44,933 nt of DNA. Origin: a virus. The position numbers and the translations under genes are program-made. The stretch spans positions 1-44,933 of the IMG/VR virus record IMGVR_UViG_3300021957_000076; one strand, given 5' to 3'. Below are positions 12,222 through 41,096 of the stretch, piece after piece. Under the pieces are notes generated by a model. The model was not told where the DNA came from. It was given only the letters and a program-made list of their open reading frames with translations, and made no database searches. How positions within the stretch are numbered: position 1 is the stretch's first letter; the number at the start of each line of letters is the position of its first letter.

Positions 12222-12934
12222 TGCAAACCCCAATAATATTTTGGAACACGATTAGACATGAGAGAGGTGTCCTTTGGAAGTGGATACCCCTTAACGTCTA
12301 ACCTACTAATCTTTTTTATTTCTTTATTAGGTGACAATTCTTTTGCCAAGTCATAAACAGTTTTGGTGTCCCCACCAACATGGACCACCCCACACTTCTC
12401 TTCCTTGATAACATCCGATATCATCTTAGCACACTCTGTAACCCCCGTCCTTGTGGTTTTTTGGTCATAGAATGCTTTGTCATAGGGAAAGTCATCTGTG
12501 CAAAAAGAAGTGCGTATGATGAGGGAGTTATCGTACATCTTAACTGCGCACTCACCTCCAAGTTTACTCCAACCATATTTATTAAATGGGTTTAAGGAGT
12601 CACTCTCTTTATAACGCCCACGTTCACCATCGAATACATAGTCACTTGAAATGTATATCAACTTCACATCTCTCTTCATGCATTCCATGACTAGGTTGGA
12701 TGTTGCGACTATGTTGGTTTGTATGGCATTAGCGGATTCTTTTGTTTCACACCCAACTGTGTCGGTCACCGCTGCCATATGTACCAAGGTATCGAAATCT
12801 TTATTAAAGAAACGATGGTAGTCTCTTGTTATATTAATGTTAAAATGTTTGCTTGTTGGGAATAGAGCATCAGGAAAATGCTCTTTTAGTTTAGACCCTA
12901 GTAAACCTGAACCACCTGTAAATGCTAACTTCAT
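12218..12934 (-). CDS. NAD(P)-dependent sugar-nucleotide reductase (RmlD-like SDR)
   Basis: 238 residues: GGSGLLG nucleotide-binding loop, VHMAAVTD, ISSDYVFDG and the catalytic YGWSK. These features match the RmlD/dTDP-4-dehydrorhamnose reductase group, though it is shorter than the usual ~290 residues. The likely reaction is reduction of a 4-keto sugar made by the neighbouring RmlB. It overlaps rmlB by 4 bases. Confidence 0.8.
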   Translation of the reverse strand: MKLAFTGGSGLLGSKLKEHFPDALFPTSKHFNINITRDYHRFFNKDFDTLVHMAAVTDTVGCETKESANAIQTNIVATSNLVMECMKRDVKLIYISSDYVFDGERGRYKESDSLNPFNKYGWSKLGGECAVKMYDNSLIIRTSFCTDDFPYDKAFYDQKTTRTGVTECAKMISDVIKEEKCGVVHVGGDTKTVYDLAKELSPNKEIKKISRLDVKGYPLPKDTSLMSNRVPKYYWGLQ

Positions 12935-13308
12935 AGATACGTTTCGTCTCCGTCTACGAAATGTTTGTAATCATGGAAGTTCATTAGGTCGTTGAATTCT
13001 TCTTTATTATTCATTTTGATTTTGCATATCCACCCAGTAAATTCCGTATCATCTGTAATGAAGAGAGGGTCTTCCTTGAGTTCTTCGTTGATCTCTACCA
13101 CTTCTCCTGATACAGGACATGGGAAGTCAAACGTTTCATCTACGGTATCGACGATGCATAATGTGTCACCCGCTATAATCTCTTCAAGATTAGGGAAGTC
13201 GATGAATTCTACCCTATTTAAAGTTTCTACGAAGAGTTCGCTTACCCCTAGATAAACAAAATTCTTTTCCTTTCTTACAAAGACGTTTTCTGTCGTATAT
13301 TTAGTCAT
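12931..13308 (-). CDS. Glycine-cleavage H-like protein lacking the lipoyl lysine
   Basis: Start at 13308 (MTKYTTENVF) behind GAGGTG. About 125 residues that follow GcvH end to end: AGDTLCIVDTV, PVSGEVVEINEEL, GWICKIK and a C-terminal helix. In GcvH the lipoyl lysine lies in ESVKAASD; here the segment reads DTVDETFD, so the lysine is replaced by Asp. Lipoylation at this site is therefore impossible. It may act as a decoy or structural mimic of host H protein. It overlaps the RmlD-like gene by 4 bases. Confidence 0.75.
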   Translation of the reverse strand: MTKYTTENVFVRKEKNFVYLGVSELFVETLNRVEFIDFPNLEEIIAGDTLCIVDTVDETFDFPCPVSGEVVEINEELKEDPLFITDDTEFTGWICKIKMNNKEEFNDLMNFHDYKHFVDGDETYL

Positions 13309-13325
13309 TATCACCTCAAAATAAA

Positions 13326-13359
13326 AGGTTGTGGGGAAAAAACCCTGACCCCACAACCT
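13326..13359 (-). terminator. Rho-independent terminator (minus strand)
   Basis: Perfect 11-bp stem AGGTTGTGGGG / CCCCACAACCT with a 12-base loop, followed on the minus strand by TTTTATTTT. It ends the 13386-13988 transcript. Confidence 0.85.
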
Positions 13360-14859: not shown

Positions 14860-15218
14860 ATTCTATCCTCTTTAACTTCGAAATAGAAAGAATTAGCGTT
14901 ATGCGTTTTTCTAAGCGCATCTAAAAGAGCAACTCTATGTTCAATGATTTCGGTATGCCCACTAAACACTACATACCCTTCATCTCCTGCATACTTAATT
15001 GCTTCTCTTCCATCATAAGCAGACTCTGTGCTATAATTCAAGCATTGCGTTAATGCCATGATGTAAAAATTGTAATCACAAAAAGCAGAGTAGAAAACAA
15101 CGATATGAAAATGGGGAAAAGTGGCAAGCATAGTACACTTCTCCCCATAACCTAAAGATGCCCGTAACTTCTCTAGACCACTAAGACGATAATAAATATC
15201 TCCTATCGTCTTAAGCAT
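14856..15218 (-). CDS. Hypothetical protein downstream of Ro60 gene
   Basis: 120 residues, overlapping the 3' end of the Ro60 gene by 8 bases, so it belongs to the same transcript. Aromatic and cysteine-rich middle (FYSAFCDYNFYIMALTQC). No recognised domain. Co-expression with Ro60 suggests, but does not prove, a linked RNA-related role. Confidence 0.65.
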   Translation of the reverse strand: MLKTIGDIYYRLSGLEKLRASLGYGEKCTMLATFPHFHIVVFYSAFCDYNFYIMALTQCLNYSTESAYDGREAIKYAGDEGYVVFSGHTEIIEHRVALLDALRKTHNANSFYFEVKEDRI

Positions 15219-16620
15219 CCGTGATCATCTTTTGGTATTTCTCAACTGTAGTCACCATGATAGACTCTGGTGAGATACGATCAAGATCTGCGTCAACAAC
15301 TGCCTTCATGACAAATGGAGAGAATCCACTCACCAAGGCTACACCATCTTGAGTAGATGATGATGGGTAGTTGTCGTATCCTGCGTTAAGGTTCCAAAAG
15401 ATCACCTTTGGTATCTCATACCCACTTTGTTCGAATGCTACACGCATCTTACCAAAAGCGGTTTCATAAGAAGGAACATCAACTTGTCTCCAAGCACCTC
15501 TATTACTACCAGTTGCCTCGTCGAATTGCATGTCACTAAGAACAACAAGGTACTCTGGCATTTGCTCCTTTGGGATTTGACTTTGAACTGCCTCGTTCAA
15601 AATTGCTTGGTAAGCACTTTGGAAGTTAGTGGTCATGCCCCAATCGGAACGTCGAAGTGATTCGAATACTCGTCCTACGTCATCAGTCTCTGGGAGATCT
15701 TGAAGAGTAGACTTCTCTGAGAAAGTCAAGAACTTATTCTTGAAAGACCCTGTGTTCTTTTGTGCCAAGAAAGCACCAAGAGAGATAGCAACTTCCATGC
15801 AAGTAACACCCTTGGACGCTGTACAGTCCATGGAACTACTTGTGTCAACCATTGGAAGGATGTTTGCTCCAATCTCCATTTCAAGTGCCTTCCATTGCTT
15901 ACTAGCAAGTTGAGCACTGTTGTCATTAGAGTACAAACCTTGCTTCCATGTTTGGTAGATTTGATGAGGGAAAAGAACGGACGCATTTACTTTAGCATCA
16001 TCGTCATTGATCCAAGAATCAAATCTCTTGCCATCATGAGCACGGAATACGTTTGCGTTCTTTTTCATGCAAACCGAAGGAACGTGTTCGTAGGTAATAT
16101 CCACCCACTCTTTGCCACACATCTTTTTCTCAACGATGTTAGGTCTTCCTGCGACGATCTTTTTACGGAACTCTTTGTTAGACATCTTCATGTGCTTACG
16201 AAGGCGGTGGTCTTTCTTGATGTTGACCCACTTGTGTGCCAACTCATTACCTTCTTCGATAGCATCTGCCCAAATCTTGACAGCGACATCCTCAAGAGAG
16301 GTGTTGAAACCAGAACGAAGGTCATCAAAACGGCCCAAGGTAGGTGCGAGTTTGAGCAACTTGGTTGCTAACTTTTGATCCACCTTGATCAATTTACGAA
16401 GGAGGTTACGAAAGGTTTCTCTTTCCCCTGCTCCACCTCTTGCGTCTCTTGCCCAAGCAAGGATAGCAGCGGTTAGTTCAGGTTCACTTTGGAGTGCCTT
16501 ATCAAAAAGACCCTCGACCCTTTCTTGTGCGTTTCTAGCAGAACCAATATTGAAGAAGAGATCTACTGTCTCTCGTCCAGTTCCACTAAGGGCATTTTCA
16601 CCATTCATTGTTTGAGTCAT
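15211..16620 (-). CDS. rsr: Ro60/Rsr protein (TROVE + vWA domains)
   Basis: Start at 16620 (MTQTMNGENALSG) behind AGGAGGT. 469 residues. The N-terminal two thirds is the HEAT-like TROVE ring: NIGSARNAQERVEGLFD, ILAWARDARGGAGERETFR, and LPTLGRFDDL-like helices. The C-terminal third is a von Willebrand A domain with the MIDAS motif DTSSS near residue 257 and VVLSDMQFDE near 360. Ro60 orthologues bind Y RNAs and the ends of misfolded RNAs; in Deinococcus, Rsr works with exoribonucleases and its Y RNA gene lies directly upstream. Here a Y-like RNA (16695-16763) sits between promoter and gene. It probably acts in RNA quality control, or in reshaping host RNA decay during infection. Confidence 0.9.
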   Translation of the reverse strand: MTQTMNGENALSGTGRETVDLFFNIGSARNAQERVEGLFDKALQSEPELTAAILAWARDARGGAGERETFRNLLRKLIKVDQKLATKLLKLAPTLGRFDDLRSGFNTSLEDVAVKIWADAIEEGNELAHKWVNIKKDHRLRKHMKMSNKEFRKKIVAGRPNIVEKKMCGKEWVDITYEHVPSVCMKKNANVFRAHDGKRFDSWINDDDAKVNASVLFPHQIYQTWKQGLYSNDNSAQLASKQWKALEMEIGANILPMVDTSSSMDCTASKGVTCMEVAISLGAFLAQKNTGSFKNKFLTFSEKSTLQDLPETDDVGRVFESLRRSDWGMTTNFQSAYQAILNEAVQSQIPKEQMPEYLVVLSDMQFDEATGSNRGAWRQVDVPSYETAFGKMRVAFEQSGYEIPKVIFWNLNAGYDNYPSSSTQDGVALVSGFSPFVMKAVVDADLDRISPESIMVTTVEKYQKMITDA

Positions 16621-16694: not shown

Positions 16695-16763
16695 CGGATA
16701 AGTTCGACTTCCAACAACCCTCGACTTTTCATATCGTTTGGATATATTTGCTGTATCTTATCC
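16695..16763 (-). ncRNA. Y RNA-like leader RNA upstream of Ro60 gene
   Basis: On the minus strand the RNA starts GGATAAG (16763-16757), continues AT-ACAGCAA, and closes with CTTATCC (16702-16696) followed by G: a perfect 7-bp terminal stem around about 54 bases with small inner hairpins. The ACAGCAA motif and the stem-G ending recur in five RNAs of the tRNA array, with compensatory changes in the stem. Its 5' end lies about 4 bases after the predicted transcription start of the early promoter. Position directly upstream of rsr matches bacterial Y RNA genes. Identity as Y RNA is inference. Confidence 0.65.
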
Positions 16764-16773
16764 CTATGAACAA

Positions 16774-16801
16774 ATTATAGCATCAAGAACCACATTGTCA
16801 A
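16774..16801 (-). promoter_or_regulatory. Early sigma70-like promoter of the Y RNA/Ro60 unit
   Basis: TTGACA, 16 bases, TATAAT on the minus strand, preceded by AAAAATAGCAT. Start expected near 16767. Confidence 0.85.
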
Positions 16802-36931: not shown

Positions 36932-37047
36932 CGGATAACATTTTTACGTTGCTCTACCAACTGAGCTACCGAAGTTTTCACTAAGGGTGAGATTCGAACT
37001 CACGACATACGGCTTAAGAGGCAGTTTGTAATTGCTGTTAGCTATCC
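36932..37047 (-). ncRNA. Y RNA-like (YrlA-type) with circularly permuted tRNA-Lys(CTT) module
   Basis: Terminal stem GGATAGC/GTTATCC, then TA-ACAGCAA. Inside, in order: anticodon arm ACTGC-CTCTTAA-GCCGT, ATGTC, T-arm GTGAG-TTCGAAT-CTCAC, CCTTAGT-GAAA-ACTTCGG (acceptor strands joined by a tetraloop), TA, D-arm GCTC-AGTTGGTA-GAGC, A. Rotated, these make a standard 72-base tRNA with two acceptor mismatches. It lies 6 bases upstream of tRNA-Gly and 9 bases downstream of tRNA-Asp, so tRNA processing could release it. Y RNA identity inferred. Confidence 0.7.
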
Positions 37048-38798: not shown

Positions 38799-38855
38799 CA
38801 GGTAACATATAAGTCAAGTTTCAGATTTGATTGTTTAAATTGCTGTTAGTTACCT
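38799..38855 (-). ncRNA. Short Y RNA-like RNA
   Basis: Terminal stem AGGTAAC/GTTACCT followed by G, then TA-ACAGCAA and one small hairpin TCAA...TTGA; no T-arm. About 57 bases, 6 bases upstream of tRNA-Gln. The first stem base pair differs from its relatives by a compensated change. Confidence 0.55.
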
Positions 38856-40525: not shown

Positions 40526-40581
40526 CGGATAACATTTTATTTCGCCAAATGAAAGTTTGTTGAAGTTGCTGTTAGTTATCC
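40526..40581 (-). ncRNA. Short Y RNA-like RNA
   Basis: Terminal stem GGATAAC/GTTATCC followed by G, TA-ACAGCAA, and a small hairpin TTTC-ATTTGGC-GAAA. 56 bases, no T-arm. The stop codon of 40576-40806 lies within its 5' stem strand; tRNA-Ala begins 5 bases after its 3' end. Confidence 0.55.
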
Positions 40582-40977: not shown

Positions 40978-41096
40978 CGGATAGCATGTTTCTTGGGCGG
41001 ATGCTCTACCAACTGAGCTACCTTAGCTTTCGCTGCGGGTGAGATTCGAACTCACGACATTCTGCATGGAATAGAAATATTTGCTGTTAACTATCC
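40978..41096 (-). ncRNA. Y RNA-like (YrlA-type) with circularly permuted tRNA module
   Basis: Terminal stem GGATAGT/GCTATCC followed by G and a T-run; TA-ACAGCAA. Inside: anticodon-type arm TTCT-ATTCCATGC-AGAA (CCA possible), TGTC, T-arm GTGAG-TTCGAAT-CTCAC, CCGCAGC-GAAA-GCTAAGG, TA, D-arm GCTC-AGTTGGTA-GAGC, A. Same order, linker and mismatch positions as 36932-37047. It lies 9 bases downstream of tRNA-Trp. A separate normal tRNA-Trp exists, so this RNA is unlikely to be needed for decoding. Confidence 0.7.

What the first reader, a model, noticed from the sequence alone, without database searches (positions are those of the whole stretch)
40978..41096. Second permuted tRNA module with identical plan
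Same order, same GAAA linker, same positions of acceptor mismatches (4 and 5), same outer stem class and motif, but different sequence in most stems. Two independent copies preserving the fold argue for selected function. A normal tRNA-Trp lies 9 bases away, so decoding is not its likely purpose.
Basis: partly seen in the sequence, partly recalled or inferred. Interest (0 to 1): 0.85.

Follow-up and report, generated by a model that had tools for sequence, protein, structure and literature searches.

The report
Phage Y RNA with tRNA-mimic module
The "permuted tRNA" is one of five related small RNAs in this phage that look like Y RNAs, the partner RNAs of Ro60-type RNA-binding proteins; the phage also carries such a protein, and the same RNA-protein pairing recurs in hundreds of phages and in bacterial and archaeal genomes.

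Summary
On the minus strand at 41096-40978 a T arm, a GAAA-capped acceptor stem and a D arm lie in permuted order inside a 7-bp outer stem; a paralogue lies at 37047-36932. It is not a tRNA gene. It is a YrlA-type bacterial Y RNA (Rfam YrlA is the only non-tRNA family matching both copies, although below its curated cut-off). The outer stem and its ACAGCAA motif recur in three short hairpins without the tRNA module. One lies directly upstream of the window's DUF2828 gene, behind a perfect sigma-70-type promoter; that gene's product has a predicted Ro60 (TROVE-vWA) fold.

A covariance model of the hairpin finds it in 65 of 80 viral DUF2828 loci not used to build it (133 of 133 hits on the gene's strand, 57 loci within 400 nt) and in none of 18 control loci. 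It also finds it beside bacterial and archaeal DUF2828 genes. The terminal signature matches Dictyostelium Class I RNAs, reported as dictyostelid-only.

Best explanation: an RNP in which the Ro60-like protein binds the outer stem and displays an anticodon-less tRNA mimic. RNA and protein identity are well supported; binding and function are inferred. Phage YrlA and Ro60 are known; the DUF2828/ACAGCAA class appears to be a new variant.

The parts
40978..41096 (-). E4: the finding. YrlA-like Y RNA with tRNA-mimic module
41090..41096 (-). E4 outer stem, 5' arm GGATAGT (pairs with 40979-40985)
41081..41087 (-). E4 ACAGCAA motif
41039..41055 (-). E4 T arm GTGAG-TTCGAAT-CTCAC
41021..41038 (-). E4 acceptor stem closed by GAAA: CCGCAGC-GAAA-GCTAAGG, mismatches at 4 and 5
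41003..41018 (-). E4 D arm GCTCAGTTGGTAGAGC
40978..40985 (-). E4 outer stem 3' arm GCTATCC plus the conserved following G
36932..37047 (-). E1: paralogous YrlA-like RNA with tRNA-mimic module
   Evidence: (YrlA 36.5 bits over the full model)
38799..38855 (-). E2: short hairpin of the same class, no tRNA module; aligns end to end with Dictyostelium Class I RNA
   Evidence: E=2.8e-8; in the training set
40526..40581 (-). E3: short hairpin of the same class, no tRNA module
   Evidence: E=8.3e-8; in the training set
16695..16763 (-). E5: short hairpin of the same class, directly upstream of the Ro60-like gene
16774..16801 (-). Consensus promoter TTGACA-16-TATAAT ending about 10 nt before E5
   Evidence: 12 of 12
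15211..16620 (-). Ro60-like gene (DUF2828 + DUF7788 vWA; phrog_850 RNA-binding protein); start taken as the ATG at 16620 after AGGAGG

Best explanation
E4 and E1 are phage Y RNAs of the YrlA kind. The outer stem, with ACAGCAA on its 5' side and G after its 3' side, is the handle for the phage's own Ro60-like protein (gene 15211-16620). The inner module is a tRNA fold without an anticodon, whose acceptor end is sealed by GAAA, so it cannot be charged or decoded but still shows a bacterial-type elbow (TTCGAAT / AGTTGGTA). The RNP most likely works like known Rsr-Y RNA particles: the Y RNA gates or tethers Ro60, and the tRNA-like arm draws in tRNA-handling proteins or acts as a decoy for tRNA-cutting enzymes, so that tRNAs and other structured RNAs are sorted, degraded or protected during infection. 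The short hairpins E2, E3 and E5 share the handle but carry other loops, so one protein could be given different cargoes. Shown: anatomy, covariation, family spread, linkage to the Ro60-like gene, predicted Ro60 fold. Inferred: binding of this protein to this stem, and all function. The confidence given is for 'Y RNA of the phage's Ro60-like protein'; for the specific function (tRNA mimicry in RNA surveillance, repair or protection) I would say about 0.45.
For: YrlA is the only non-tRNA Rfam family hitting both copies. phrog_850 (Ro60-like) is encoded by 29 of 39 viral records with permuted modules and 0 of 11 control records with ordinary tandem tRNAs; Pfam TROVE hits the same ORFs in 25 of them. 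The window's protein folds like Ro60: VIA Z 16.2 to 1yvp, the ten best rows are all Ro60/TROVE, the next row is 8.8. The hairpin model hits 65 of 80 independent viral DUF2828 loci, 133 of 133 hits on the gene strand, 0 of 18 controls; bacterial/archaeal loci 34 of 80, 45 of 46 hits on the gene strand. Stem covariation: 6 of 7 pairs change on both sides, 216 cells. The ACAGCAA outer stem encloses a permuted tRNA module in 18 further elements from 17 loci, including Felixounavirus wV8, mycobacteriophage DyoEdafos and Enterococcus phage EfV12. A Listeria phage related to LP-048 transcribes non-coding RNAs strongly near its Rsr-like gene (PMC12282133).
Against: The YrlA score is under Rfam's gathering score (36.5 and 31.4 against 69). 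The window's protein itself has no Pfam TROVE match, and the DUF2828 profile finds TROVE in PDB sequences only at E=0.077, so the link rests on fold and on phrog_850. E1 and E4 lie 20-25 kb from the gene. Stem pairing was part of how the training set was chosen. Some viral loci are near-identical, so counts are not fully independent. CcrColossus has the gene but no hairpin hit, and Enterococcus EfV12 was missed by the model although the motif scan finds three elements. No binding or function data exist.
Confidence: 0.8

Rival explanations
1. A true permuted tRNA gene, processed through a circular intermediate into a working tRNA as in red algae and some archaea.
For: Order of halves (3' half, linker, 5' half) is the same; T and D arms are canonical.
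Against: No anticodon loop: the anticodon arm runs into the outer stem. Acceptor mismatches at 4 and 5, a tetraloop linker, no CCA. ARAGORN does not call it and Rfam tRNA gives only 17 bits on E1. The outer stem occurs without any tRNA module (E2, E3, E5).
Confidence: 0.03
2. Decoy only: an RNA sponge for host anticodon nucleases or tRNA-modifying enzymes, independent of the Ro60-like protein.
For: The elbow is of bacterial consensus type and its T loop TTCGAAT differs from every other T loop found in the array with an exact tRNA-type match; the authors of PMC7790460 suggest that Salmonella YrlA could competitively inhibit an anticodon nuclease.
Against: Does not explain the conserved outer stem and motif, shared with hairpins that lack a tRNA fold, nor the tight linkage to DUF2828 genes.
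Confidence: 0.12
3. The ACAGCAA hairpins are cis-acting elements (leader or processing signals) rather than trans-acting Y RNAs.
For: Many lie within 200 nt upstream of the gene; E5 sits in the 5' leader.
Against: Many others lie downstream or kilobases away inside tRNA arrays, in 2-5 copies, with variable loops and tRNA-like inserts.
Confidence: 0.1

Closest known systems
YrlA bacterial Y RNAs (Rfam RF02553; Salmonella YrlA)
   Same: Permuted tRNA-like module with sealed acceptor end inside a terminal stem; linked to a Ro60 orthologue
   Different: Outer stem carries ACAGCAA...G, not the Rfam consensus; below the gathering score; sits in a tRNA array; family includes short forms without the module; partner is DUF2828-type
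Ro60/Rsr (TROVE-vWA) proteins, including the solved Ro60 of Thermus phage phiLo (9l5y) and mycobacteriophage 'Ro-like RNA binding protein'
   Same: Predicted fold of the whole protein; vWA MIDAS residues D276, S278, S280, T348, D380 conserved
   Different: About 10-18% identity over aligned residues; recognised by Pfam as DUF2828/DUF7788, not TROVE
Dictyostelium Class I RNAs (Rfam RF01414)
   Same: About 60 nt, short terminal stem with covarying sequence, motif ...ACAGCAA next to the 5' stem, AAG start and CUGU end, variable loop
   Different: Below gathering score (best 33.4 against 41.5); eukaryotic, own promoter element; reported binding protein is the RRM protein Rnp1A; no Ro60 link reported in the paper read
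Putative Y RNAs of Listeria phage CKA15 (PMC12282133)
   Same: Non-coding, strongly transcribed regions near tRNA genes and upstream of an Rsr-like gene; Listeria phage LP-048 has three hairpins of this class just upstream of its DUF2828 gene
   Different: There proposed from HHpred and RNA-seq only; no motif or structure given in the passages read

Membership tests
YrlA (RF02553) | Score at or above Rfam gathering cut-off | tested here: not met
   36.5 and 31.4 bits against 69
YrlA (RF02553) | Permuted tRNA-like module: T arm, acceptor hairpin, D arm | tested here: met
YrlA (RF02553) | Terminal stem joining the ends, of the family's sequence type | tested here: inconclusive
   Stem present but the motif differs from the Rfam consensus
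YrlA (RF02553) | Encoded with a Ro60/Rsr protein | tested here: met
YrlA (RF02553) | Binds Ro60; module modified by tRNA enzymes | not testable with these tools
   needs wet work
Ro60 (TROVE-vWA) protein | Ro60 fold over the whole chain | tested here: met
   Z 16.2 to 1yvp, model range 15-465, top ten rows all Ro60/TROVE
Ro60 (TROVE-vWA) protein | Pfam TROVE match of the window protein itself | tested here: not met
   only DUF2828, DUF7788, VWA_2
Ro60 (TROVE-vWA) protein | vWA MIDAS residues DxSxS, T, D | tested here: met
   invariant in A4, A5, A7
Dictyostelium Class I RNA (RF01414) | Score at or above gathering cut-off | tested here: not met
   20.1 bits for E2, best 33.4 in G029, cut-off 41.5
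Dictyostelium Class I RNA (RF01414) | Terminal stem, 11-nt motif, AAG start, CUGU end, variable loop | tested here: met
   (position 3 of the motif, T in dictyostelids, is variable here)
Dictyostelium Class I RNA (RF01414) | Common ancestry with the amoeba RNAs | not testable with these tools
   no eukaryotic genomes held
Permuted tRNA gene | Anticodon loop and a processable, fully paired acceptor | tested here: not met

The most novel reading that the evidence does not exclude
The ACAGCAA hairpins and DUF2828 Ro60-like proteins form one ancient RNP class present in phages, bacteria and archaea, and Dictyostelium Class I RNAs are its eukaryotic members, i.e. they are Y RNAs of a DUF2828-type protein. 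In phages the loop has been swapped for a permuted tRNA module, giving a tRNA-mimicking RNP.
Probability: 0.4. Interest if true: 0.92.

Novelty: new variant of a known kind. Interest (0 to 1): 0.78.

Why it matters
It turns an odd permuted tRNA into a testable RNP. It gives the DUF2828 family, annotated as unknown or merely 'RNA-binding', a likely RNA partner. It supplies a covariance signature for finding Y RNAs in hundreds of phages. And it suggests a protein partner for Dictyostelium Class I RNAs, whose function is open and which were reported as found nowhere else.

Tried and rejected
Working permuted tRNA gene: rejected (no anticodon, sealed acceptor, mismatches). GAAA linker and 4/5 mismatch as family hallmarks: rejected, relatives use AGAT, TTCAT, GCAA, TT, TTGGTC and fully paired acceptors. 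Megablast of the region against phages: no match. P0001 alone in viral contigs: no confirmed relatives; the 14-protein alignment found hundreds. First AlphaFold job with a very diverged alignment: pLDDT 54, not used. Profile comparison A5 against A4 is circular because both contain P0001, so it is not counted. Hits of RF01414 in three near-identical control contigs (G040, G044, G048; 23.8 bits) were treated as chance: the G040 site, the one fetched, lacks the motif in the scan. A candidate hairpin at 42293-42171 was left out: its sequence resembles boxA-type repeats. The hairpin model does not hit TROVE-type phage records (0 of 9), so those YrlA RNAs use another outer stem.

Full report
What is there. 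On the minus strand, 41096-40978 reads GGATAGT-TA-ACAGCAA...GTGAG-TTCGAAT-CTCAC-CCGCAGC-GAAA-GCTAAGG-TA-GCTCAGTTGGTAGAGC...GCTATCC-G. The T arm, the acceptor strands joined by GAAA and the D arm are in permuted order. The anticodon arm is replaced by a variable region running into a 7-bp outer stem. The paralogue at 37047-36932 has the same plan. The arrangement is far beyond chance: two on the minus strand, none on the plus strand, mean 0.003 in 300 shuffles.

More members in the window. The outer stem plus motif occurs five times, all on the minus strand (0.12 expected by shuffling, 0 of 200 shuffles reach 5). E1 and E4 carry the tRNA module. E2 (38855-38799), E3 (40581-40526) and E5 (16763-16695) do not. 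E5 lies just upstream of the ORF 15211-16620 and starts about 10 nt after a 12-of-12 consensus promoter.

Identity of the RNA. With relaxed thresholds the only non-tRNA Rfam family matching both E1 and E4 at a small E-value is YrlA, Y RNA-like (36.5 and 31.4 bits; gathering 69). YrlA-like permuted modules occur in many viral contigs. From memory, not tested here: YrlA in phages and tRNA mimicry by YrlA were described by Wolin and colleagues (2014, 2018); papers held here cite that work for mycobacteriophages (PMC12282133) and for phages in general (PMC7765460).

Identity of the protein. ORF 15211-16620 matches DUF7788, DUF2828 and weakly a vWA domain, and phrog_850 'RNA-binding protein' at 1.6e-115. 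phrog_850 and Pfam TROVE hit the same ORFs in 25 viral records. A second AlphaFold model (35 sequences, pLDDT 82.5, pTM 0.83) matches Ro60: Foldseek ranks 1-9 are all Ro60/TROVE, including Ro60 of Thermus phage phiLo. VIA gives Z 16.2, rmsd 4.1 over 345 residues to 1yvp, and the first ten rows are Ro60 before vWA-only rows at 8.8. By sequence alone the DUF2828 profile reaches TROVE in the PDB only at E=0.077.

Linkage of RNA and protein. Of 39 viral records with a permuted module, 29 encode phrog_850; of 11 records with ordinary tandem tRNAs, none (p=9e-6). A motif-plus-stem scan near DUF2828 genes of named phages found 1-4 copies each in Listeria LP-048, Felixounavirus wV8, Cronobacter S13, Campylobacter CP39, mycobacteriophage DyoEdafos, Enterococcus EfV12 and Staphylococcus BE22, against 0.01-0.05 expected per locus by shuffling. 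KVP40, Aeh1 and GAP32 carry them elsewhere in the genome.

Independent test. Model R1 was built from 22 hairpins. In whole records at E<=1e-3 it hit 14 of 15 DUF2828 phages and 0 of 16 records without the gene; counting only phages not used for training, 7 of 8. A further phrog_850 phage, CcrColossus, gave no hit. In 80 new viral DUF2828 loci the model gave 133 hits in 65 loci, all on the gene's strand, 57 loci within 400 nt of the gene, and none in 18 control loci. Near-identical contigs inflate the counts, but not the strand result. In 80 bacterial and archaeal DUF2828 loci it gave 46 hits in 34 loci, 45 on the gene strand; 28 loci have one within 400 nt. These include Woesearchaeota, Roseiflexaceae, Treponema, Anaeroplasma and the complete chromosome of Breznakiella homolactica; whether some of these genes lie in prophages was not checked. 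The stem covaries: 99.5% of cells paired, six of seven pairs with changes on both sides. Pairing was part of the model, so the percentage is biased; the double changes less so.

The module is old. In 18 further elements from 17 loci the ACAGCAA outer stem (7 of 7 pairs) encloses a permuted tRNA module with unrelated acceptor sequences and linkers. The GAAA linker with 4/5 mismatches is a sub-class shared with L052 and L060 and, with a one-base longer linker, L057.

A eukaryotic echo. E2 aligns end to end with Dictyostelium Class I RNA (20.1 bits). That model finds hairpins of this class in other DUF2828 phages, up to 33.4 bits and E=4e-6, always below the gathering score of 41.5. Class I RNAs have a short covarying stem, an 11-nt motif next to it, start AAG and end CUGU, and were reported as absent outside dictyostelids (PMC7919456). 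Prokaryotic elements such as AAGGTTGCTCACAGCAA...GCAACCTGT (L225) fit this description. Whether this is homology or shared binding logic cannot be told here.

Mechanism. Shown: anatomy, covariation, linkage, predicted fold. Inferred: the Ro60-like protein binds the outer stem; the sealed tRNA fold is displayed to tRNA-handling proteins; the particle sorts, degrades or protects structured RNAs, or shields tRNAs from cutting. Expression is supported indirectly: in the Listeria phage CKA15, non-coding regions near the tRNA genes and upstream of the Rsr-like gene are among the most transcribed, and that protein is found in purified particles (PMC12282133).

Verdict. A new variant of a known kind (YrlA Y RNA with a Ro60-like protein), with a wider link to DUF2828 and possibly to Class I RNAs that I did not find in the papers searched. 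Most subscription journals and all preprints are outside that search.

Noticed in passing
window 41130, 39158, 38323, 37081, 32781, 32704 (minus): At least six T arms in the tRNA array have loop AGCGTNA instead of TTCRANN; nine more have TGCRANN. The D loops look changed too (e.g. AATAGTA). Possible non-canonical elbows in phage tRNAs.
   Followed up: partly
window about 42177, 41893, 41653, 41451 (minus): Repeated boxA-like sequence (G)TTCTTTGACAATTTAG / TTCTTTAACATTG, like rRNA antiterminator boxA, ahead of tRNA and other RNA units.
   Followed up: no
window 41650-41470 and 41890-41720 (minus): Two units of roughly 180 nt closed by long stems (TTTAGAAAAGTAAA...TTTACTTTTCTAAA; TTTAGGAAAAT...ATTTTCCTAAA), one holding a D-arm-like stretch; further structured RNAs of unknown kind.
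   Followed up: no
window about 41438-41350 (minus): Probable tRNA-Tyr (GTA anticodon, long variable arm) not called by ARAGORN.
   Followed up: no
window 42120-42093, 41951-41924, 41688-41661 (minus): Consensus promoters (12, 11 and 12 of 12) within the tRNA array.
   Followed up: no
window 12931-13356 (minus): Glycine cleavage H-protein-like gene in a phage.
   Followed up: no
L057 6692-6871: Phage contig with a permuted tmRNA (RF04321, 93.7 bits) close to its YrlA-like RNA.
   Followed up: no
L107 (Listeria LP-048), L116 (Cronobacter GAP32): The DUF2828 gene lies a few genes away from an RtcB-like ligase, or next to an RNA ligase, fitting an RNA-repair role.
   Followed up: partly
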